Assembly: GCF_003201205.1 (NCBI RefSeq)
Contig: NZ_QICN01000001.1
Location: forward strand, 620,001 to 684,000
Reading direction: 5' to 3'
From: Sinimarinibacterium flocculans
Lineage (GTDB): Bacteria > Pseudomonadota > Gammaproteobacteria > Nevskiales > Nevskiaceae
DNA: 64,000 nt
Shown here: positions 1,958-47,558 of the stretch, one piece after another
Numbering within the stretch: position 1 is the stretch's first letter
Layout: every line of letters begins with the position of its first letter
Position numbers and translations under genes: made by a program
The notes under the pieces: model-generated
Told to the model about the DNA's origin: nothing
Databases searched by the model: none
What the model saw: the letters and a program-made list of their open reading frames with translations, nothing else

Positions 1958-3421
1958 ATGGGCGGGACCTCGCTTCTGCGTGGAGGGATGCGCAGCAGGA
2001 CATCGGTCCGGTCGGTCGGCGCAGGCAGGATGGGGGCTCGAATGGTGCGGTCGGGCATCACGACGACAATGATGCAGGGCGCGCTCTATGCAGCCGTTCC
2101 GGCCCTGCTGCTGATGGCGATCGTCGATGCCTACGGCTATCCCTTCGAGCCGCCGTACCAGGTCATGGCGATGCTCGGCGCCGTGTTCTCGTTCCTGCTG
2201 CTGGGGCGCTACGACCTGCTGGCCGAATGGCGCATGGACCGCCCAGGGTCCGTCGGCACGCAGCTGCTCTACAGCTGGGGGGTGATCGTGGGGCTGATGC
2301 TGTTCATCGCCTACGTCTCCCGTTACACCGGCTACTTCTCGCGCGTGATCGTGACCGCGTGGTTCGTCATGACGCCGGCGGCGCTCGCACTGCTGAACTT
2401 CTTCGCGCGATGGTTCACCCGCCGCTTCGTGCCGCACGCGCTGGCGCAGCGCAGCGCCGTGATCGTCTTCGCGAACGAGTCCGCGCAGATGCTGGCGCGC
2501 AGCCTGCAGGAGTCGGAGCTGTACCGGCTCGAGGGCTATTTCGACGACCGGGCGGGCGACCGCGACGCTCAGAACGCGCGGATCGGCCGCCTGCTCGGGC
2601 GCGTGCAGGACCTCGTTCCGTACGTTCGCGAGCACCACACGGAAGTCGTCTTCATCATGCTGCCGGAGCAGGGCATCGGCCGCGCGACGGAGCTGCAGGA
2701 CCTGCTCGGCGACACCACGGCGTCGGTGTACTTCGTGCCGAACTTCGCGCTGTACGACCTGATCGGCGCCGAGCTGTCGGAGGTCGAGGGCGTACCGGTT
2801 CTGCGGGTTTCGGAGACGCCCTTGTTCGGCATCGACGGCGTGTACAAGCACGTCTTCGACTTCTGTGCCCCGGCCGTCGGTCTGGTCCTGCTGGCGCCGC
2901 TGATGCTCGCCATCGCCGCCGCCGTGCGGCTCGATTCGCGAGGGCCCGCCCTCTACCGGCAGCGGCGTTACGGACTCAACGGGCAGGAGTTCGTCGTCTA
3001 CAAGTTCCGCACGATGCACGTCAACGATCCGGACGACCGCATCGTCCAGGCGCGGCGGGACGACGCGCGCGTGACGCGGATCGGGCGCTTTCTGCGTCGC
3101 ACCTCGCTGGACGAGCTGCCGCAGCTGTTCAATGTGCTCAAGGGCGAGATGAGCCTGGTCGGACCGCGTCCGCACGCCGTGCAGCACAACGAGTACTACC
3201 GCAAGGCCGTCAAGCACTACATGGTGCGCCACAAGGTCAAGCCGGGCTTGACCGGCTAGGCGCAGGTCAACGGTCTGCGCGGCGAAACCGGCGAGCTGAC
3301 GTTGATGGAGCAGCGCGTGCGCTACGACCTCGACTACATCCGGCGCTGGTCGCCGCTGTTCGACATCCAGATCATCCTGAAGACCCTGCTGATGATCCTG
3401 CGCGACCGCAACGCGTACTGA
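1958..3421 (+). pseudogene. Undecaprenyl-phosphate sugar phosphotransferase (WcaJ/PssZ type), interrupted by in-frame TAG
   Basis: Polyprenyl glycosylphosphotransferase that would start exopolysaccharide synthesis by moving a sugar-phosphate to undecaprenyl phosphate. It has N-terminal membrane segments (about residues 45-145), a CoA-binding-like central domain, another membrane hairpin near 300 and the bacterial sugar transferase domain (KFRTM, SLDELPQLFNVLKGEMSLVG, PRP). After KPGLTG the frame meets TAG at 3257-3259 and then continues perfectly as AQVNGLRGET and 53 residues to TGA at 3421. The family has GW at this place, so a single TGG-to-TAG change explains the stop. The last ~54 residues are lost unless the codon is read through. 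Start could also be the ATG at 2043. Sequencing error is possible. Confidence 0.85.
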
Positions 3422-3529
3422 GACTCGCCGAAGGGCGGGCTTGCCCGGCCCCGGGCGTGAAGATATTGTCCTATCTATGTCATTTCGATGAGGTTTACTC
3501 GGCGCTTCGGGCTTTAGAGCCGGGCATGG

Positions 3530-4093
3530 ATGGACACGATTCCCGCAATTCTCAAGGTCGACGCCGGCGGCATGCCGGTTTCGTGGATCCACTGGCAGAC
3601 CGCCGTGGTGCTGTACGCGCGCGCGCGCGTGCGATGGGAGGCGGGGGCCGAACGTTTCCTGATCCGTGGCGGAACCAATGCCTCGACGGGGCGCCGCTCG
3701 GAGCTGCGGATCGGCTCCATCATCGCGGTGGCGGACCGTTCGCGCCGGCACGCGCGTGTGGTGCCGCTGCTGACCAACCGGACCCTGTTCCAGCGGGATC
3801 GCCAGCTGTGCCTGTACTGCGGGCGACAGTTCGCCGCCTCGCAGCTCACGCGTGACCACGTGTTTCCGGCCTCGCGGGGCGGCCGCTCGGTCTGGGAGAA
3901 CTGCGTGACGGCATGCCGGTCCTGTAATCAACGCAAGGACGACCGCACGCCGGAAGAGGCCAACATGAAACTCATCGCCGTGCCGTATACGCCGAATCTC
4001 GCGGAGTACCTGATTCTGTCGAACCGGCGGATACTGGCCGACCAGATGGAGTTCCTGCTGGCCCATGCGCCGAGTCCGGCGCGCTGCGGCTAG
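3530..4093 (+). CDS. HNH endonuclease family protein
   Basis: 187-residue protein with a C-terminal HNH domain: CLYCG, then TRDHVFPASRGG with the catalytic His, WENCV with Asn, CRSCN and a basic tail KDDRTPEEA. The two CxxC pairs would hold a structural zinc. The N-terminal ~100 residues are a conserved partner region without a domain I know. Stand-alone HNH proteins of this size are common chromosomal genes in proteobacteria; the biological substrate is not established. It follows the broken sugar transferase by 108 bases and precedes a DUF1631 gene. Confidence 0.8.
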   Translation: MDTIPAILKVDAGGMPVSWIHWQTAVVLYARARVRWEAGAERFLIRGGTNASTGRRSELRIGSIIAVADRSRRHARVVPLLTNRTLFQRDRQLCLYCGRQFAASQLTRDHVFPASRGGRSVWENCVTACRSCNQRKDDRTPEEANMKLIAVPYTPNLAEYLILSNRRILADQMEFLLAHAPSPARCG

Positions 4094-4262
4094 GGACCTT
4101 CCAGCGCGGGATTGCCACCGTGCGGCGGAATCGGACAATATTTGTCACGCAGTTGTGGTACAAAACTGACACGATGTTCACCTCCCGCTAAGGAAGGCAG
4201 GGTCGGAGGCCGATGGGCGGCTACCGGCAGGAGGATCGGGGACCGAGGTCAGAGCAAACAAC

Positions 4263-6449
4263 ATGAACGCGCACGCGCACGCGACAGTGGAATCCGAGGC
4301 GCCGGCGGCCAATGCCGGCGAGCCGTCGGAGCGGTCCAATCCCATCGTTTCGGCGTTGTACGAGATGGCGGTTTCCGTCCTCGGCGACCAGCTGCGCGAG
4401 ATGTTCGACAAGGCCGACGACATCCTCTTCGACTCGGCCGAGAAAGCCCGCGCGGGCGACGAGCAACGCCTGTACCTCGACACGATGCGCATCGTGCGCG
4501 TGCAGCGCGCCAAGATCATCAACGCGTTCCAGGGCTCCCTGCGCGAGGCGCTGGCCAGCATCGGCAACGACGACGAAGCGGGAACACGCAATCACCTCGA
4601 CGACATGTCGCAGTGGTCGCTGCAGGACGGCGACGCGCTCGAGGAGCGCATCGCGGTCAGCAACATGGAGACCAAGGCGGCCTCGCTGCATGCGCACGAA
4701 CTGGTCGAGTTGCAGCGTCGCCTCGCGCGCCTGTCGGACATGTCCGGCGACGGCATCACGTCGGAGTCGATGGCGCCGGCGCGCATCATCCGCGCGTTCC
4801 AGAATTCGATGCGGGACCTGTCGGTCGATTTCCCGATCAAGCTGGTCATCTACAAGCTGTTCGATCGCGTCGTGATCGGGCGCCTGTCGGAGGTCTTCGT
4901 CGGTGCCAATCAGCTGCTCGCGGTGCACGGCATCGAGCCGCGCACCGACGGCCCTGCGCAGGCGCGCAAGCCGGCCGCGCAATCGTTCGGCAGGCCGTCG
5001 CCGGGCGCTGCGCCCGGCGTGCCGTCCTGGGCGAACGGCCTGGATCAGTCGACCCTGGGCGCGTTCTCGGGGCCGGCCTATGGCGGCGGGTCACCGCAGA
5101 TGACGGGCGGCAGCGCATCGGCCGGCGGTTCTCCGGCGCCGTGGCCCTCGCAGCCGGGAAGCTGGGGCGCCGCCGCAGTGCAGGGCAGCTACGGCGATGC
5201 GATGCTCTCGCAGGAGATCGCGCAGATTCTCGGCGCCTATGCACAAGGACGGGCACCGCAGGCGCCGAACTGGCTGCCGCCCGAGAACGTGGCGCTGGTC
5301 GCGCGCATGTTCGACGGGTTCTATCGGGACGCGCGCCTGCCGGACCATCTCAAGCCGATGCTCTCGCGCCTGCAGTTGCCGGTGATGAAGGCGGCGCTGT
5401 CCGACCGGCGCTTTTTCGTCGATCCGCAGCATCCGGCGCGACGGACGGTGAACGACCTGTTCGAGATGCTGTTGCAGTTCGGCACCGCCGAGTCGGCGCC
5501 CCAGCCGCAGATGATCAGCGAGCTGCAGGGACTCATCGATGCCGTGTCGCGCTCGTTCAACCTCGATCCCGAGAAGCTGCGCGCGCACCAGTCGGAGCCG
5601 GTCGACGAGCGCACCGCCGACAGCTTCCTGCGCGAGCAGGAGGAGCTGCAGCAGAAGAAGAACCGTGCACGCGTCGAGCGTGTGCGCCGTGTCGTGTCGC
5701 ACGAACTCAAGCGGCGCATCGGCGAGCGTCGTCTGCCGCCGGGTGTCATGCGCCTGATGCTGTCCGGCTTCGGGCCGCTGCTGTGCCTCGACTACATCCG
5801 CAACGGCATCGACGGCGCGTCCTGGACGCAGACCATGCAACTGGTCGACCGCGTCATCGACAGCCTGCAGCCCAGCCGCGGAAGCACGGCAGAGCGGGCC
5901 GCAGCCGAGGCCGAGATCGTGGCCCACATCTCGCGCCGTCTGGCCAACATCGGATTCTCCGATGCGCGCCTCGAGGAAGTGCTGTCCGGCTTGCTGCAGG
6001 CCTATCTGGAACTGGCGGACAACGACGACGAGGCCATCTTCGAGGACGCACAGGACGGCACCCTGCGGGTGTCGGTGCCCGAGGCGGCGCCGGCGATGAG
6101 TCTCGAGCTGAGCCCGGAGAAGGAGCTGCAGGGGCTGCTGTCGATCCTGCTGGTTCCGGGCGGCTGGTTCACGGTGTGGGAGCCGGCAACCCAGACCAAG
6201 CACTGGGTGCGGGTCAAGGGCTACTACCCGGTGCAGAACGCGGTGATGTTCGGGCACTACATGGAAGAGCGCTTCCTGCGCATCCGCGCATCCGCATTCG
6301 CGACGGACCTGATCGAGGGGCGTGCCTCGCCGATCGATCCGTCACCGGAACTGCAGGCGGCGGTCGCACGGGTTGCGGAGCTGCCGTTCGAGCGTGGTTC
6401 CGATGCGCTGGTCTGGACCAGCGTGGACGGCAAGCCGATCGAGGGCTAA
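4263..6449 (+). CDS. DUF1631 family protein
   Basis: 728-residue cytoplasmic protein of the DUF1631 family, whose role is unknown. The N-terminal part (ALYEMAVSVLGDQLREMFDKADDILFDSAEKA) and the C-terminal part (RRVVSHELKRRIGERRLPPGVMRLML onward) are the conserved blocks. A Gly/Ser/Pro/Ala-rich linker occupies roughly residues 235-300. No signal peptide or membrane segment is visible. A diverged second family member is at 34786-36552 on the opposite strand. The start was chosen because the conserved N-terminus follows directly and a purine-rich GAGGTCAGAG lies upstream. Confidence 0.85.
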   Translation: MNAHAHATVESEAPAANAGEPSERSNPIVSALYEMAVSVLGDQLREMFDKADDILFDSAEKARAGDEQRLYLDTMRIVRVQRAKIINAFQGSLREALASIGNDDEAGTRNHLDDMSQWSLQDGDALEERIAVSNMETKAASLHAHELVELQRRLARLSDMSGDGITSESMAPARIIRAFQNSMRDLSVDFPIKLVIYKLFDRVVIGRLSEVFVGANQLLAVHGIEPRTDGPAQARKPAAQSFGRPSPGAAPGVPSWANGLDQSTLGAFSGPAYGGGSPQMTGGSASAGGSPAPWPSQPGSWGAAAVQGSYGDAMLSQEIAQILGAYAQGRAPQAPNWLPPENVALVARMFDGFYRDARLPDHLKPMLSRLQLPVMKAALSDRRFFVDPQHPARRTVNDLFEMLLQFGTAESAPQPQMISELQGLIDAVSRSFNLDPEKLRAHQSEPVDERTADSFLREQEELQQKKNRARVERVRRVVSHELKRRIGERRLPPGVMRLMLSGFGPLLCLDYIRNGIDGASWTQTMQLVDRVIDSLQPSRGSTAERAAAEAEIVAHISRRLANIGFSDARLEEVLSGLLQAYLELADNDDEAIFEDAQDGTLRVSVPEAAPAMSLELSPEKELQGLLSILLVPGGWFTVWEPATQTKHWVRVKGYYPVQNAVMFGHYMEERFLRIRASAFATDLIEGRASPIDPSPELQAAVARVAELPFERGSDALVWTSVDGKPIEG

Positions 6450-38605: not shown

Positions 38606-39697
38606 GTTCCGGCCTGAGCGCAATTCCCAATCGGTTACGCTGTCGGTGTCGCGCAGACTATCGGTAGCGGTGTTCCGGCCTGAGCGCAATTCCCAATCGG
38701 TTACGCTGGACGAGGCGGACATGCTCAGCGATCTGTAGTTCCGGCCTGAGCGCAATTCCCAATCGGTTACGCTACCACCATGATCTACACCCACGTCCTC
38801 AACGTTCCGGCCTGAGCGCAATTCCCAATCGGTTACGCTCTCTCCGCCTCCACGCTCATCAGCCGATCAGTTCCGGCCTGAGCGCAATTCCCAATCGGTT
38901 ACGCTCGAGCAGTTGATGACCTCGATGCCGCGGTGGTTCCGGCCTGAGCGCAATTCCCAATCGGTTACGCTCCACGGCGAGCAATTGCCCATCCCCGAGA
39001 TGTTCCGGCCTGAGCGCAATTCCCAATCGGTTACGCTCCTCGTCGTCGACGGTGTCACCCACATCGTGTTCCGGCCTGAGCGCAATTCCCAATCGGTTAC
39101 GCTCGACAACGGCGACCCCTTGCTCCACAGCATGTTCCGGCCTGAGCGCAATTCCCAATCGGTTACGCTACCACGGGCTCTCGGATGAGGGATCGGCGAG
39201 TTCCGGCCTGAGCGCAATTCCCAATCGGTTACGCTGTGCGGGTAGATGACGTCGCCGGTGACGAGGTTCCGGCCTGAGCGCAATTCCCAATCGGTTACGC
39301 TCAGTCGCGCGCGCACGACGGCGAACGATCCGTTCCGGCCTGAGCGCAATTCCCAATCGGTTACGCTAGCAGTCCCGATGTCCCACGAGTCATTTGAGTT
39401 CCGGCCTGAGCGCAATTCCCAATCGGTTACGCTTACCAGCACGTTGTTGTTCACGGCCCAACAGTTCCGGCCTGAGCGCAATTCCCAATCGGTTACGCTG
39501 TTCCTCGCCATCTCGACGATGCAGAACAGGTTCCGGCCTGAGCGCAATTCCCAATCGGTTACGCTCCCCGTAAGAGTGGCGCTCCCACGCCGACGGTTCC
39601 GGCCTGAGCGCAATTCCCAATCGGTTACGCTCGTGCCGGCGATGATCCGCGATCCCCAGCGGTTCCGGCCTGAGCGCAATTCCCAATCGGTTACGCT
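38606..39697 (+). CRISPR. Type II-C CRISPR array: 17 repeats of 36 bp, 16 spacers of 30 bp
   Basis: Repeats start every 66 bases from 38606 to 39662. Each begins GTTCCGGCCTGAGCGC and ends CGGTTACGCT, and I see no variant among the 17. All 16 spacers are 30 bp and all differ. Orientation is set by the tracrRNA anti-repeat (44290-44308), which is complementary to the repeat as read on the plus strand, so crRNAs come from the plus strand, toward cas2. The repeat end TACGCT weakly resembles a -10 box, so repeat-borne promoters as in Neisseria II-C arrays are possible. Confidence 0.98.
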
Positions 39698-39770
39698 GCG
39701 TGTAACAGAACCCCATGAAGTATCAGGGTTTTCTGTTATATGTGGCGCAACAAAGCGGAGTTCGCATGGG

Positions 39771-40097
39771 CTAGAACAAGTTGAACTGGTCTGGATTTTT
39801 TCTCGCGCTAGCTCGCTTCTTGCCGACGAAGGTGGCAATGCGTTCGTATTGTTTGTCGGTGAAATAGAGGATGTCCACCTTGCCGCCGTCGGGTAGTTCC
39901 GACTCGACGCGCTTGGTCAAGGTGTCAGCCTGCTCGGGGCCGGTGCAATGGCGCAGATATACCGAAAACTGCGCCATCTCGAAGCCTTGATCGAGCAGCG
40001 CCTTGCGGAATGCGGTCGCCGCCTTGCGCTCCTTGTCTTCGACCACGGGTAGGTCGAACATCACCAGCATCCACATCAGCCGGTAGCCGGTCAGCAT
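39771..40097 (-). CDS. cas2: CRISPR-associated endonuclease Cas2
   Basis: 108 residues with the ferredoxin-like start WMLVMFDLPV (Asp15) and KVDILYFTDKQYERI. It forms the spacer-integration complex with Cas1. The start overlaps the cas1 stop by one base (TGATG). Only 73 bases lie between its stop and the array. Confidence 0.95.
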   Translation of the reverse strand: MLTGYRLMWMLVMFDLPVVEDKERKAATAFRKALLDQGFEMAQFSVYLRHCTGPEQADTLTKRVESELPDGGKVDILYFTDKQYERIATFVGKKRASARKNPDQFNLF

Positions 40098-44000: not shown

Positions 44001-44227
44001 TGGCGCTTGAGCCAGCGGTCGCGCCGCCGACGCATCCCGCGCGCCATTCTGCGGGCGACGGCGAGCGAGGCCTTGTCCTTGGGGTTGCGCCCATCCCGGA
44101 ACAGCCGCACTCCCAAGCGAACCAGGCCGACGGGCTCGTCGGCCTCGTTGATCTGCACGATGCACCAGCCCAGCGAATTGGAACCCAGATCAAGCCCCAG
44201 CCGATATCGGACCGCTTTCTTTCTCAT
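41030..44227 (-). CDS. cas9: CRISPR-associated endonuclease Cas9, subtype II-C
   Basis: 1065 residues, compact as for II-C. RuvC-I has Asp13 (LGLDLGSNSLGW), the arginine-rich bridge helix is at 60-80 (RRMARGMRRRRDRWLKRQK), RuvC-II has Glu527 (ALEVTREL), HNH has His612 with Asn626 and Asn635 (VEHILPFARTLDDSIANK), and RuvC-III has His753 and Asp756 (HRHHALDAATIAV). All nuclease residues are intact. The C-terminal ~250 residues form the PAM-interacting part (SHPGRGSEARGAPYKAYKGD). ATG 44227 follows GGAGGGAATCCG. The operon is cas9-cas1-cas2. Confidence 0.97.
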   Translation of the reverse strand: MRKKAVRYRLGLDLGSNSLGWCIVQINEADEPVGLVRLGVRLFRDGRNPKDKASLAVARRMARGMRRRRDRWLKRQKRFMAALIQHGLMPADADTRRALAAIDPYALRKRGLSEALTPHELGRALFHLNQRRGFRSNRKVDKADEKESGKIKSALKEVRDRLAAQGARTVGEWLADRHAQRQPVRARLRGQGAKAAYELYVGRDMIADEFDALWSAQVGFNPSALTSAARDELRDILLHQRPLRPVRPGRCTLEPDDERAPLALPSAQRFRILQELNHLRYETGVGEERALTLEQRDLFTRLLEGQTGPGKRDKADARGQLSFDTMRRMMGLPDTVKFSIESDKREGLKGNATSLAMAKADRFGVAWHQLSLAQQDAVVELLLEEERETAIVEWLMKLHGLNEAAALRAANTGLADSHSNLGRKALAKVLPHLAANVVTYDKAVLAAGYASHSQLHTGEYFGHSALPYYGRILQSAVGFGSGNPEDSEEKQCGRIANPTVHIGLNQLRRLVNAVIERYGPPTQIALEVTRELKQSRDQRERIQKEQAENQKQRDADREELQRHGLRDTGENLLRLKLWRELNIRDPLDRRCPYTGRQIGREKLFSEEVEVEHILPFARTLDDSIANKTLAYREANRYKKNSTPFEAFGQSLHGFDWQAIQDRAANMPSNKKWRFADRAMEQFETRHGGDFLARHLTDTAYLSRTAKAYLSYVCHPNDVWVTPGRLTALLRGKWGLNQLLSDSGKKNRTDHRHHALDAATIAVTDRSLLQKVATLSGQERLEREKDRILVPYPWEGFRDALEQALPRIVVSYKPDHGYQAGLHNDTAYGFAEPYEPGRPSQVVHRVPLLSLTKPTDLDDIRDRALRERIKAAVAGTEGKEFAAKLAAFVEQTGISRVRVAETLTVIPMGRGGSHPGRGSEARGAPYKAYKGDGNYCVEIYRDENGRWRDHIVTSFEAAQIARRDPARLRHKTLAQNGMSLVMRLCADDFVAVGSETYRRIYRVAQMTAGKIILAEHHEGGDLRNRDRDKDDSFKYLVRAASALKDAEARRVFVTELGYVLDPGFKP

Positions 44228-44249
44228 CGGATTCCCTCCACCTGTGCGC

Positions 44250-44300
44250 TTGTGCCGCGCATTTCAGGCCGATACTATTCCCACGCTAGCCGATTGGGAA
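44250..44300. promoter_or_regulatory. Overlapping divergent promoters for tracrRNA (+) and cas9 (-)
   Basis: Plus strand: TTGTGC (44250-44255), 17 bases, TACTAT (44273-44278). Minus strand: TTCCCA (44300-44295), 17 bases, TAGTAT (44277-44272). The two -10 boxes are the same ATACTAT seen from each side, and the cas9 -35 lies inside the tracrRNA anti-repeat. Spacing is seen; use is inferred. Confidence 0.6.
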
Positions 44301-44369
44301 TTGCGCTCTTTCCGCTAACAAGCAGCAAGATGCACAAACTGAGAAACGGGGCCGCGAGGCCCCGTTTTT
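44283..44369 (+). ncRNA. tracrRNA
   Basis: 44290-44308 (19 bases, CCGATTGGGAATTGCGCTC) is the exact complement of the repeat core, flanked by a G-U-compatible change and a mismatched bulge, then GCGG-type pairing near 44312. A short nexus hairpin GCA-GCAAGA-TGC follows, then an intrinsic terminator ACGGGGCC-GCGA-GGCCCCGT-TTTT (44346-44369). Length is about 85 nt, short for II-C. It sits divergent from cas9. Confidence 0.92.
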
Positions 44370-44574
44370 ATGTCGGCAGACGAGATCCGTGCGGGCGAGC
44401 GCGCAGAACGGCAAAGCCGCTCGATCGACCCCCACCCCCACGTCCAATGGCAGCTTTGCGGCGGTATTTTCTCGGCTGACGACTTCCGCTTCGGGTTGTA
44501 AGGGGTCGGTGACGGCTGTGGAGGACCATCTTCGCGAGTTCGCCCGCGGTGAGTGTCTTTGTGGCGGCTTGCAT
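44368..44574 (-). CDS. Possible small ORF downstream of the 256-residue gene
   Basis: 68 codons beginning four bases after the preceding minus-strand stop (MQAATKTLTAGELAKMVLHS) and turning Arg/Gly-rich and unlikely after residue 30. It ends against the tracrRNA terminator. It may be the start of a gene truncated when the CRISPR locus arrived, or chance. The rest of 44370-44578 shows nothing else. Confidence 0.3.
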   Translation of the reverse strand: MQAATKTLTAGELAKMVLHSRHRPLTTRSGSRQPRKYRRKAAIGRGGGGRSSGFAVLRARPHGSRLPT

Positions 44575-44578
44575 GATC

Positions 44579-45349
44579 TCAACCCGGGGGAATGCCAGTC
44601 GAGGGCAGGAGCGTTCCTGAACTCCTGTAGCGCGCGATCAGCGTCGATAGCGGAGTCGTCTTCACACCCGTCCGAACGCACCGCTCCAAGCTTCTCGTCC
44701 AGGGGTACGGAGATCCGTTGGGTGCCCGACAGAGAATGGCGTCAACGCAGCCGCGCAGCATTGCGATGTCTCGAACACATAGCGGGAAGGCATGCAGGCG
44801 ATCGATTTGATGGGCAATGACTCGCACTTCGATTTCGGGGTATCTGCTTGACTCTGCGAGATCGATGTTGCGGTTGAGGATGTTCTTCGCGGACGGCCTT
44901 AGCGCCCATGCTCTCCGGCAGAAAAGTTCCGCGTTCAGCTTCATTTGCGGCGTTTCGAAATCGGAGGGTCGGTCCGGGAAGCATCGAACTGCGGACGACA
45001 CTTCAATCAGCACCTTCCTCAGTTCGTACTTATCGCCCCAAGGCGCAACGAACAGTTCGTCTCGGGTGTCCATGAACAACAGGCCCTCGACCGGTTTCGT
45101 CGACAGCAGCGCCCAGTCGATCGAGTGAGCGTGCTGCGCATGTGCAATCAACAGTCCACGCGCGCCTCGGGGCTCGTGCTTCGGGCCGGCGAGCGGGCCG
45201 AGGGTTTCAAACTTCATCAGCAGTTCCTCTATCTCGTAGGGATGGGCAGATCCGTATGCAATGAACGGATATCGGGGTAGCGCTGCTTTAAGGTGCGCCA
45301 TGGCTCGAGGCTGAAAAAACCAGACGAGTGGATCGAAGGTGCTGGACAT
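44579..45349 (-). CDS. Hypothetical protein next to the CRISPR locus
   Basis: 256 residues, no domain I recognise. It is soluble, with WFFQPRAMAHLKAALPRYPF near the start, an Asp/Arg-containing middle (LLFMDTRDELFVAPWGDKYE) and many scattered Cys in the C-terminal half. A ribosome site GGAGATTCC precedes the ATG. It is read in the same direction as, and about 90 bases after, the terminator of the candidate large RNA, so it may be regulated by or co-inherited with that element. Function not inferred. Confidence 0.55.
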   Translation of the reverse strand: MSSTFDPLVWFFQPRAMAHLKAALPRYPFIAYGSAHPYEIEELLMKFETLGPLAGPKHEPRGARGLLIAHAQHAHSIDWALLSTKPVEGLLFMDTRDELFVAPWGDKYELRKVLIEVSSAVRCFPDRPSDFETPQMKLNAELFCRRAWALRPSAKNILNRNIDLAESSRYPEIEVRVIAHQIDRLHAFPLCVRDIAMLRGCVDAILCRAPNGSPYPWTRSLERCVRTGVKTTPLSTLIARYRSSGTLLPSTGIPPG

Positions 45350-45446
45350 TGGAATCTCCGTTTGCAGTGGGCGATGCGTGGGAGGTACCGGGCGTCCCGA
45401 TGCGGGGGAATTCGATGTCTCGATTGGGCGCGGCGGTGTAAGAAAG

Positions 45447-45475
45447 GTCCGATCGAGCCACAGGCTCGATCGGAC
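45447..45475 (-). terminator. Strong terminator hairpin of the candidate large RNA
   Basis: Perfect 13-bp stem GTCCGATCGAGCC / GGCTCGATCGGAC with a three-base loop. On the minus strand CTTTCTT follows; on the plus strand there is no T tract. It sits 98 bases before the next minus-strand gene. Confidence 0.8.
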
Positions 45476-45560
45476 TGGATAAGAACATCAAACGAAATGG
45501 CGGCGCGATATGCCGTCGCTCACTGCCGGCGACCATGTGGACTGGTCGCGTCCTCCCGAA

Positions 45561-45608
45561 TTAGCGCGTCGGGTCGCGGGCGAAGGGAGCCACCCGTGCA
45601 TTACGCAT
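45561..45608 (-). CDS. Possible 15-codon ORF inside the large RNA
   Basis: AGGAGG six bases before ATG, then MRNARVAPFARDPTR and TAA. The ribosome site is the best in the region. It may be a leader peptide, or the SD-like sequence may be part of RNA structure. Confidence 0.25.
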   Translation of the reverse strand: MRNARVAPFARDPTR

Positions 45609-46787
45609 TGCACACCTCCTGAACAATTGGACATAGAACCCGTTTCACTGGGGCCTGTACGTCGCAGACCGAAAGGGAATCGACAGCACCACCTGTTGCG
45701 ATTCCGGCCACGGCACCACCCGTGTGCCAGCTCCTTCTCAGCCGCGCCTTCCTGCCACGCTCGGTTGAGGAATCACCCTCCACACCTCTGCGCTCGCTGG
45801 GGACTTTCGTACCCGCCGAATACCGGCGGATGGACACGTGTTTCGACTGCATCGCACGTCATCCGCTCCTACTGATCCCCGCTCTTACCAATGGGGTTGG
45901 ATCCGGTGCCACCCGGCACCCACTGGTTTTTCCCGCGTTAGAACGCAGGTTCGCGGTTTAGCCGCTCAACATCACGACTCAAGTAGACCCTCTGGGTCTC
46001 CGCCTTTCGGCTTTCGGCAGCCCGAGCTTCCCAAGCAGCTGCTTACTCCTTTTCGTCGCTTCCATTGGCAGTCGCCCCAACTGAAGTGGGGACGACGGCA
46101 TCACCGTTACTCACGGAAGCATCCTTCTCGAGGACGCTGTTACACGTTTCAGCTATCACAGACCCCGCCGGCTTTCGCCCGCGGGTGCCTCCTGTCGCCG
46201 GCCTCGGCCCTCGCCGAAACCGCTAGGCCGGATCGCTTATAGGCTTGCGCCCTTTCGCCATCCGCACGAACCCACGTGCCGCGCACACGTCCGACCGTTG
46301 CCGGCCGCCCGTGGGTGGGACTGGCTACCCACTACTCCTGCGTCCGGGTTGGCATCGTTGCCGATGCGCCCGTGTCCGCGTCGCCCACGCTCAAAAATGC
46401 CGCCATCGATTGGGTCATCGCGGGGAATTTCACCCCGCGGTGCCCGTTGCCACGACGCGAGCCCTATTAGAGGCACGTCGCGACGGCGAGCTACCGCAGT
46501 TGGCGCTGCGGTGCTGGTGCACCGAACGGGGGCGTGGCTGCCCCGTTCGCAGGTCGGGTGGTTGCCCGACGAGAAAGCGGGTTGGTGGCCGCGCCCCGAA
46601 AGTCCGAGGCATTGATCAGGTACCGGCCGCGCAGCAAGGCTGAAATTGCGGCGCCGTGAGCCGTCCCGGCAGGTCCCGGAATGGTCGCGTGCCCATCAGG
46701 TACCTGTCCGGTGTGAGCGTGCGCGCGAAAAACGCGGAAGCTCTTTTGACCTCCTCGCATGAATCCCTTCCCTATAGTGACTTCGCA

Positions 46788-47558
46788 ATGCTCGACCCCG
46801 AGGTTCCTTCGTCCGTGACGGCCGCAATGCTGGATCTGCAGCACTGCATCTGCCGCGGTTATCGCTTCTACGTGACCGGCATCGTGCCGCTGGAAAAAGT
46901 GCAGGCAATGGTCCAGCGCTTCGCCGAGCGATACGAGCTTTCTGCTGGCAAGGACCGCCGCCACTACTTGCGGAAATCGGGCATTGCACGGTTCGATCTT
47001 GTCCTGTTTCCGCGTCCCGGCGAGACGGCATTCCAGTTCTGGCTGCTTAAGACCGAAGGGGATGATCCGCTCGCGTCTCTGGAGCGATGGCGCGATGCCC
47101 ATGCGGACTATCTGCCGTGGATCTGGCGCTACGAACTGGTCCGGCTTCCCGTGCCGGTCGGCCTGCAGAAGCGCTATCGCAAACCGCTCGAGGACCCGCG
47201 CGAGGCAAGGCGGACGCAGCGGATCCGGCCGGTGACATGGACGTGGCGGATTACAGCCCAGGCCATGGATACCATCCGTGCCCGGATCCGCTCGGCTGTC
47301 CAGCGTCCGGACGCCGAGCTGGAGCAGCTGCTGCACGGCCTGAAAACGACTCCCGGATTCCGCGGCAACCGCGACCAGCTTCGCCAGCTTTTCTACTACA
47401 TCGTCGAGCAATCGAAGAGGGCCGGGCGGCCCGTTCCAGCGCTGCCCAAGACCATCCGTTGGGTGCGCCCGATGCAGGTGGCTCGTGTGCCGCTTTCCGC
47501 GATTGTCAGACGCCATCGCCGCGGCGCACCGACATGGTTTGCTGGGCACAAACCGTAG
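46788..47558 (+). CDS. Hypothetical island protein
   Basis: 256 residues from ATG 46788. Conserved-looking core CICRGYRFYVTGIVPLEKVQ, KDRRHYLRKSGIARFDLVLF, FQFWLLKTEGDDPL and WRYELVRLPVP, then a helical region and a basic C-terminus (IVRRHRRGAPTWFAGHK). The pattern resembles uncharacterised proteins carried by integrative elements of gammaproteobacteria; I know no function. TATAGT ends ten bases before the ATG with no Shine-Dalgarno, so the message may be nearly leaderless. A longer frame back to 46656 is less likely. The gap 47559-47780 holds nothing clear. Confidence 0.65.
   Translation: MLDPEVPSSVTAAMLDLQHCICRGYRFYVTGIVPLEKVQAMVQRFAERYELSAGKDRRHYLRKSGIARFDLVLFPRPGETAFQFWLLKTEGDDPLASLERWRDAHADYLPWIWRYELVRLPVPVGLQKRYRKPLEDPREARRTQRIRPVTWTWRITAQAMDTIRARIRSAVQRPDAELEQLLHGLKTTPGFRGNRDQLRQLFYYIVEQSKRAGRPVPALPKTIRWVRPMQVARVPLSAIVRRHRRGAPTWFAGHKP

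What the first reader, a model, noticed from the sequence alone, without database searches (positions are those of the whole stretch)
45440..46610. A ~1.2-kb candidate giant structured RNA in the CRISPR island
No credible protein is encoded, yet at least ten perfect or nearly perfect hairpins occur in series, several closed by GNRA tetraloops only when read on the minus strand, and the whole ends in a 13-bp terminator hairpin. Size and density recall the GOLLD/ROOL/OLE class of ornate RNAs, which often travel on mobile elements, but it does not read as RNase P, tmRNA, a group I or group II intron. This is the best candidate for an undescribed system here.
Basis: partly seen in the sequence, partly recalled or inferred. 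Interest (0 to 1): 0.88.

Follow-up and report, generated by a model that had tools for sequence, protein, structure and literature searches.

The report
Rearranged self-splicing RNA with partner gene
The 1.1-kb non-coding stretch encodes a real, very elaborate RNA: a self-splicing intron of the group II kind whose parts are in swapped order, a type described in 2021 and of unknown purpose, and several plasmid-borne relatives sit where DNA-transfer plasmids normally keep their DNA-nicking enzyme, which suggests what it may be for.

Summary
In detail: 45440-46610 encodes a structured RNA on the minus strand. It has ten perfect hairpins of 6 bp or more (shuffled mean 2.4). In 22 homologues 126 pairs are 89.5% canonical (71.4% shuffled, 34-44% slid) and 85 show two-sided changes.

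It is not an undescribed class. Its 5' domain is a group II intron D5-D6: seven weak hits of a model of that domain, of seven checked, lie in Rfam group II introns. D5-D6 come first, splice-site motifs are reversed and internal, and the divergent neighbour gene belongs to the AcpG family: a circularly permuted (CP) group II ribozyme (Roth et al. 2021, PMC8637638). My model hits the pPNAP05 copy at E 1.5e-32.

New here: 26 of 26 plasmids found with this protein are typed non-mobilizable; 17 searched for four relaxase families gave none; 7 of the 17 have a coupling-protein gene beside the pair. In three related plasmids an unrelated protein and non-coding DNA fill that place. I propose a role in DNA processing for conjugation: untested, and one check found no reverse-splicing target.

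The parts
45447..46560 (-). CP group II RNA gene (5' end estimated near 46560, 3' end at the terminal hairpin)
   Evidence: Profile of 24 RNAs (window included) matches 46512-45483; 22-sequence covariation; strand by G-U against A-C counts
46450..46482 (-). Domain 5-like hairpin, loop ..CUAAUA (GUAAUn in many homologues); triad position reads CGC in the window (AGC in 18 of 22 aligned RNAs)
   Evidence: weak model hits elsewhere overlap Rfam RF00029
46409..46445 (-). Domain 6-like hairpin with an unpaired A that is invariant in 22 of 22 (46415, candidate branch point); 3' splice site after ..CCCAAU (46409)
   Evidence: splice-site rule NU from PMC8637638; branch point is inference
46387..46408 (-). 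22-nt linker predicted to be released as an RNA circle
   Evidence: published range 15-86 nt
46382..46386 (-). 5' splice site GGGCG, start of the D1-like part
   Evidence: TGGGCGAC in 22 of 22 aligned sequences
45476..46381 (-). D1-D4-like remainder of the RNA (domain borders not assigned here)
   Evidence: covarying helices incl. long-range ones
45447..45475 (-). 13-bp terminal hairpin, likely intrinsic terminator
   Evidence: sequence
46788..47558 (+). AcpG-family protein gene (256 aa from the conserved Met; an upstream GTG at 46656 is possible), divergent from the RNA
   Evidence: homologues beside the RNA in pPNAP05 and in Thermus pTA14

Best explanation
The stretch encodes a circularly permuted (CP) group II ribozyme on the minus strand, with its partner gene acpG divergent next to it. 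By homology with ribozymes assayed by Roth et al., the RNA folds into a group II intron core whose D5 and D6 come first; the D6 adenosine attacks the 5' splice site downstream of it, the freed 3' hydroxyl attacks the 3' splice site upstream, and a 22-nt circle plus a T-shaped branched RNA result. Shown here: existence, strand, structure, D5-D6 identity, splice-site motifs, partner gene. Inferred from the published relatives: catalysis. Inferred from genome context and not shown (I give this part about 0.4): on plasmids and integrated elements the RNA and AcpG form an RNP which serves DNA processing for conjugative transfer, in the place of an ordinary relaxase and oriT. In the window it lies on an island with an integrase and a type II CRISPR-Cas locus; no coupling-protein gene of the kind seen on the plasmids was found in the window. 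The stated confidence is for the identity.
For: Identity: weak hits of model R1 (positions 20-90 up to 20-134) were seen at 11 places; the seven with loci all lie in group II introns, six overlapping RF00029 and one (L101) downstream of a D1D4 match; four were not checked. R1 finds the RNA of pPNAP05, the plasmid on which Roth et al. report one (E 1.5e-32), and at E 1.8e-9 a Thermus plasmid beside an AcpG homologue. Linkers of 13-74 nt lie between NU and GGGCG (L009 with 13 is below the published range). Partner: 34 of 38 AcpG loci carry the RNA in the fetched stretch (five of the 38 were found through the RNA, so 29 of 33 otherwise), and pPNAP05 makes it 35. In 369 class genomes the strong RNA hits and the strong protein hits are the same 8 genomes; 6 of these 8 (the window's own among them) contributed to R1, the other two, G415 and G444, did not. 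Function: 26 of 26 plasmids with the protein (union) are typed non-mobilizable, against 137 of 1329, carriers included, among plasmids with a related coupling protein; 0 of 17 plasmid records match PF03432, PF08751, PF03389 or PF07514; 7 of the 17 have that coupling-protein gene beside the pair, four with T4SS genes listed; three relatives lacking the RNA hold an unrelated protein and non-coding DNA at that place. In E. coli the RNA is in 21 of 5426 genomes, 23 places on plasmids and none on chromosomes.
Against: Identity: Rfam gives no group II hit in the window, D1-D4 were not matched to group II models, and the window's triad is CGC, not AGC. Conjugation role: no transfer experiment; the E. 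coli plasmids are near-identical and the Paraburkholderia ones close, so the carriers with a coupling protein are about four lineages; none of the chromosomal loci has this coupling protein within the fetched flanks (about 8-10 kb, less at contig ends); 10 of the 17 plasmids have no such gene beside the pair; only three RNA-less relatives of 1329 hits were inspected; MOB typing and four Pfam families can miss a divergent relaxase, and other families (PF01076, PF02486, PF13814) were not searched on the carriers; AcpG shows no conserved catalytic residues; the ligated-exon junction that reverse splicing would need as a DNA target is not enriched on 10 plasmids (8-mer: 0-1 copies in nine, 5 against 2.1 expected in L078). 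Two acetic-acid-bacteria plasmids have AcpG without detectable RNA. Roth et al. saw expression but no processing in P. naphthalenivorans cells, and report RNAs without acpG.
Confidence: 0.93

Rival explanations
1. The RNA and AcpG are a plasmid replication or copy-number module.
For: About 40% of two 4-kb plasmids is RNA plus AcpG; the pPNAP05 copy is called near the origin of replication by Roth et al..
Against: Most carriers list their own Rep gene (TrfA, RepL, RepA, RepC or replication initiation protein); none is listed for pMtBL and pAVS0947-C. pMtBL-derived vectors use 1918-2759 as origin (PMC10033558, passages), whereas the RNA lies at 3105-3878. Roth et al. cite that nearly all of the pTT8 ribozyme can be deleted without loss of replication, with the caveat of a chromosomal copy.
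Confidence: 0.05
2. Defence or counter-defence: the ribozyme attacks invading RNA or DNA, and its co-location with Cas9 here and with a reverse-transcriptase gene in Hydrocarboniphaga reflects a defence cargo.
For: Cas9, and ORFs read as Cas1 and Cas2, and an array lie next to it in the window; an RVT_1 ORF follows the RNA in L010; Roth et al. name defence as a possibility.
Against: The neighbours differ from locus to locus; two 4-kb plasmids carry the pair without an annotated defence gene; no partner nuclease was seen.
Confidence: 0.1
3. The pair is a plasmid-borne regulator: the RNA acts on expression of the adjacent transfer genes, and transfer itself uses a relaxase supplied in trans or not yet recognised.
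For: Adjacency to coupling-protein and VirB11-like genes on some carriers; Ll.LtrB restrains expression of its relaxase gene (PMC6003770, start of abstract in a listing only); SGI1 needs a self-encoded RNA for mobilisation (PMC9299015, abstract and passages).
Against: Small plasmids without listed transfer genes keep the pair; conservation of a whole catalytic core seems more than regulation needs (inference).
Confidence: 0.25
4. Selfish remnant: a rearranged group II intron without function that persists by hitch-hiking.
For: No known mobility route; some carriers lack acpG and some acpG loci lack the RNA (L021, L068).
Against: Structure kept over alpha-, beta- and gammaproteobacteria; members of five species were all active in vitro.
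Confidence: 0.08

Closest known systems
Circularly permuted group II ribozymes, formerly T-large RNA (Roth et al. 2021, PMC8637638) with AcpG
   Same: D5-D6 first, reversed internal splice sites (NU, GGGCG), linker length, size near 0.9-1.1 kb, plasmid and chromosome residence, divergent acpG; model hit on pPNAP05.
   Different: Window copy has triad CGC in place of AGC and lies on an island with a type II CRISPR-Cas locus; activity of this copy untested.
Canonical bacterial group II introns (Rfam RF00029, RF02005, RF02012)
   Same: D5-D6 sequence and structure (weak R1 hits), unpaired A in D6.
   Different: Domain order permuted, no internal reverse-transcriptase ORF, splice sites inside the RNA.
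SGI1 mobilisation module with sgm-sRNA (PMC9299015, abstract and passages)
   Same: Mobilisation module without a classical relaxase, using a self-encoded RNA.
   Different: Functional core under 300 bp, tyrosine-recombinase-like MpsA/MpsB, no ribozyme reported; a precedent for the role, not a relative (not compared by sequence).
GOLLD, ROOL, OLE
   Same: Large ornate bacterial RNA.
   Different: No Rfam hit; not known as splicing ribozymes (recalled).

Membership tests
CP group II RNA | D5-D6-like domains at the 5' end, followed by the rest | tested here: met
   5' domain is D5-D6 by overlap of weak model hits with RF00029 (fold); about 900 nt of conserved structure follows
CP group II RNA | AGC catalytic triad in D5 | tested here: inconclusive
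   18 of 22 AGC, 3 CGC (window, L054, L060), 1 AGU (L061); CGC occurs in some active group II introns (recalled)
CP group II RNA | Bulged adenosine in D6 | tested here: met
   Unpaired column 100 between paired columns 99 and 101; the A is invariant in 22 of 22
CP group II RNA | 3' splice site (NU) upstream of 5' splice site (GGGCG), short linker | tested here: met
   22-nt linker at 46408-46387; rule from PMC8637638
CP group II RNA | D1-D4 identity, EBS/IBS and pseudoknots | tested here: inconclusive
   Covarying helices found but not matched one by one to the published model; figures are not held
CP group II RNA | Sequence homology with a published member | tested here: met
   R1 on pPNAP05 121-283, E 1.5e-32; whole-RNA profile 113-867, E 2.7e-75; taken to be the copy that Roth et al. 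place on pPNAP05
[quoted passage not shown]
   Needs an in vitro reaction
AcpG (TTHC007 family) | About 260 aa ORF next to CP group II RNA, homologous to the Thermus protein | tested here: met
   256 aa, divergent; family profile matches a Thermus aquaticus pTA14 ORF at E 5.3e-29 beside an R1 hit; TTHC007 itself was not fetched
Canonical group II intron | Order D1 to D6 with splice sites at the borders, usually an intron-encoded RT | tested here: not met
   D5-D6 stand first; no RT ORF inside; no Rfam group II hit in the window
Conjugative relaxase (for AcpG) | Match to a relaxase family or a conserved catalytic site | tested here: not met
   In Pfam at E up to 10 no family is matched by more than 1 of 30 members (best E 0.0062, none a relaxase); the only invariant residue is an Arg
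RT thumb/maturase domain (for AcpG) | Structural match to a group II RT thumb | tested here: inconclusive
   Low-confidence model from 4 sequences (pLDDT 60.8); Foldseek nothing at E 0.001; VIA Z 7.3 (retron Ec86 RT, rmsd 2.3, 64 aligned), 5.9 (G2L4 RT, 2.5, 72), 4.8 (group II RNP RTs), below de novo helical proteins at 7.7 and within the range the tool calls common

The most novel reading that the evidence does not exclude
The CP group II ribozyme with AcpG is a ribozyme-based substitute for the conjugative relaxase: the branched RNA, whose free D6 3' hydroxyl can attack a DNA strand as in the first step of reverse splicing, would nick DNA, stay joined to the 5' phosphate and leave a free 3' hydroxyl, which is the chemistry of a relaxase, while AcpG and the coupling protein deliver the RNA-DNA to the T4SS. 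Small plasmids and integrated elements with only the pair would be mobilised in trans.
Probability: 0.18. Interest if true: 0.97.

Novelty: new member of a known kind. Interest (0 to 1): 0.62.

Why it matters
The authors of the class state that its biological role is unknown. The comparison made here, across 38 loci and 26 plasmids, points to transfer plasmids without a recognised relaxase, including 30-kb E. coli plasmids that can be studied with standard genetics. I saw no paper that makes this link in the listings; those listings are capped, preprints and most subscription papers are not held. If RNA and AcpG are needed for transfer, a ribozyme would take part in conjugation, and some plasmids now typed non-mobilizable would be mobile.

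Tried and rejected
Rfam on the window at gathering and at E up to 10 in 44200-46800: nothing relevant. DNA search in phages: none; protein in phages: none; five scans of viral contigs: no relative. The G003 DNA match lies in ordinary coding sequence and was dropped as chance. Replication module: see rivals. An inovirus reading of the genes right of the RNA was a guess from memory; Pfam gave it no support, PHROGs was run on only two of those genes. Ribozyme nick target: searched, not found. AcpG fold: no usable match. PDB sequences: nothing below E 0.6.

Rows dropped and limits of counts: the RNA alignments hold 24 of the 38 loci (near-duplicates, loci without a clear anchor, cut ones, and L067, which an IS256 gene interrupts, were left out); L057 and L059, the most divergent, were dropped from A7 and A8, so one search covers 22 of 24; L064 was in the first alignment only and was left out of the fold. 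The structure counted was derived from the same alignment and kept only pairs at least 70% canonical, which favours it over the slid control and over chance; the G-U and A-C counts use the same filter on both strands. R1 and the profile match their own members by construction. One search covered one strand only; searched both. L012, L019, L052, L056, L058, L064, L065 and L069 were left out of protein alignment A6. The coupling-protein profile was built from five of the carriers, so their hits are by construction; the independent evidence is the tblastn and, for two of three tested proteins, Pfam (the E. coli protein has no Pfam hit to a coupling-protein family). L066's linker of 15 nt is a false stop; one search gives 74 nt for that plasmid. 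That the non-coding DNA of L079-L081 is rich in inverted repeats was judged by eye.

Full report
What was checked. No credible coding frame covers it; ten perfect hairpins of 6 bp or more occur, against a shuffled mean of 2.4 and maximum of 6 in 100; a perfect 13-bp hairpin closes the 3' side. Only one hairpin has a GNRA loop by that rule. Rfam finds nothing relevant. Folding energy is below that of 25 shuffles, more so on the minus strand.

Homologues. A DNA search of 100 relatives gave matches in five genomes: the window's own, three real homologues (among them Hydrocarboniphaga effusa and an Abyssibacter assembly, named through) and one chance match in coding sequence. A Burkholderia glumae plasmid was found as well. 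These four homologues have a homologous protein gene beside the RNA, and that family led to 26 plasmids and further genomes: 10 of 369 of the class, two of them weak, 11 of 85 of the order, one weak, and 2 of 398 of the phylum, the window's own genome counted each time. Stretches upstream of the gene match one another in the RNA sense, the only strand searched. A profile of 24 RNAs, searched on both strands, finds the RNA in 34 of 38 loci; of the other four, pPNAP05 has it across the record start, one contig is cut (L056), and two acetic-acid-bacteria plasmids lack it (L021, L068; also absent from the whole records L021 and L076). In 33 of the 34 the gene is on the opposite strand and divergent; in pMtBL both lie on one strand.

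Structure and strand. On 22 aligned RNAs, 126 pairs in 25 helices are 89.5% canonical; shuffling gives 71.4%, sliding 34-44%; 85 pairs have two-sided changes. The structure was derived from the same alignment. In the first domain, column pair 33-55 has four pair types and no break in 22 sequences. In the sense structure G-U cells number 393 and A-C cells 64; in the antisense structure 135 and 119. The RNA is therefore read from the minus strand of the window.

Identity. A covariance model of the first domain (R1) was run over 85 and 369 genomes. Besides strong hits it gave 11 weak ones that begin at the same model position. Seven had loci; Rfam puts a group II intron in all seven, in six overlapping the D5-D6 family RF00029. 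The first domain is thus a group II D5-D6, standing at the 5' end. A library search then found Roth et al. 2021 (PMC8637638; I read the abstract, parts 1-3 of 9 of the text, sections 16 and 17, the first of two parts of the Discussion and search passages). They describe circularly permuted group II ribozymes with domain order D5-D6-D1-D2-D3-D4, splice sites NU and GGGCG around a 15-86 nt linker, branched and circular products in vitro, and an associated protein AcpG. The window agrees: linker 22 nt at 46408-46387, GGGCG at 46386-46382, invariant unpaired A in D6. The model finds a copy on pPNAP05, where they report one (E 1.5e-32), and a Thermus copy next to an AcpG homologue. One difference: the triad position reads CGC in the window, as in two other homologues.

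Partner. In the 369 class genomes, strong RNA and strong AcpG hits are the same eight genomes; members from six of them are in R1, two are not. In the 85 genomes of the order, ten have strong AcpG and nine strong RNA, seven shared; the three without an R1 hit (G006, G010, G053) do have a diverged RNA by the longer profile (L057-L059), and the two RNA-only genomes have an AcpG remnant (G009) or an RNA near a contig end with no AcpG in the held stretch (G023, L090). AcpG has no convincing Pfam, PHROG or NCBIfam relative and only one invariant residue in 30 sequences, which suits an RNA-binding protein better than an enzyme (inference). A low-confidence model has a C-terminal bundle whose middling matches include reverse-transcriptase thumbs; this is a lead only.

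Context and function. The 26 plasmids found with the protein are all typed non-mobilizable. Of 1329 plasmids with a coupling protein like that of pBN5, 137, carriers included, are so typed. In 17 carrier records no relaxase of four Pfam families was found (each search rang in at least one control genome). Seven of the 17 have a coupling-protein gene beside the RNA-AcpG pair, with Pfam support for two of three tested; T4SS genes are listed for pBN5, pGDIPal5I and two E. coli plasmids, and the B. glumae plasmid lists TraG and TraH. Several others list no transfer genes (for example), as small mobilizable plasmids do apart from their mob region. Three plasmids with a related coupling protein but no RNA, chosen from the best non-carrier hits, have VirB11, a protein of 237-290 aa, 0.86-1.06 kb of non-coding DNA rich in inverted repeats (by eye) and the coupling protein, in the order seen in pGDIPal5I; neither protein nor DNA is related to ours; one of the proteins matches Replic_Relax below its cut-off. 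I read this as a swap of DNA-processing modules at one place. Replication is an unlikely role: most carriers list Rep genes, and pMtBL-derived vectors use 1918-2759 as origin (PMC10033558, passages), outside its RNA at 3105-3878; that paper also reports that almost all of pMtBL is transcribed, with transcription of both strands. An RNA in a relaxase-free mobilisation module has a precedent in SGI1 (PMC9299015, abstract and passages).

Against the role. No experiment; few independent T4SS lineages; no coupling protein of this family in the fetched flanks of the chromosomal loci or in the window; no enrichment of the ligated-exon junction on ten plasmids; Roth et al. found AcpG absent from some carriers and no processing in P. 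naphthalenivorans. The words conjugation and type IV secretion do not occur in their main text.

Verdict. A real and well-placed observation; the RNA is a new member of a known, unexplained class. The added value is a testable proposal for what that class does.

Noticed in passing
L075 (pTunz1) 33183-32178 and 17792-16868: Two copies of the RNA on one plasmid, one of them without an AcpG gene beside it.
   Followed up: partly
L067 (Pandoraea pPO70-4) 3278-5529: An IS256 transposase gene (4062-5327) interrupts the RNA within its first domain.
   Followed up: partly
L079 26749-27608, L080 10946-12010, L081 14063-14966: Non-coding DNA rich in inverted repeats (by eye) between a coupling-protein gene and a 237-290 aa protein (one weakly Replic_Relax-like) on plasmids typed non-mobilizable: a candidate second kind of oriT plus relaxase.
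   Followed up: partly
L010 7776-10736: A 986-aa ORF with a reverse-transcriptase domain (RVT_1) directly 3' of the RNA in Hydrocarboniphaga, possibly a defence RT (recalled).
   Followed up: no
window 38867-39838: CRISPR array of the type II locus; the long frame there looks like the repeat array read through, not a gene.
   Followed up: no
window 44579-45349: 256-aa minus-strand ORF between cas9 and the RNA without a family match.
   Followed up: no
L018 100-789 and L019 982-1497: An ORF with weak matches to membrane-protein families sits between AcpG and the RNA in the Halomonas and Azotobacter plasmids.
   Followed up: no
window 45920, 45730, 45695, 45580 (approximate): The 3' half of the RNA repeats short GGGUGG(C/U)ACC-like elements, also in homologues (by eye); perhaps multiple protein-binding sites.
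   Followed up: no
L020 1282-1425: An RsmZ/PrrB sRNA (61.2 bits) on Azotobacter plasmid pAcX50a.
   Followed up: no
L021, L068: AcpG with a C-terminal extension (389 aa frame) on two acetic-acid-bacteria plasmids that lack a detectable RNA.
   Followed up: partly
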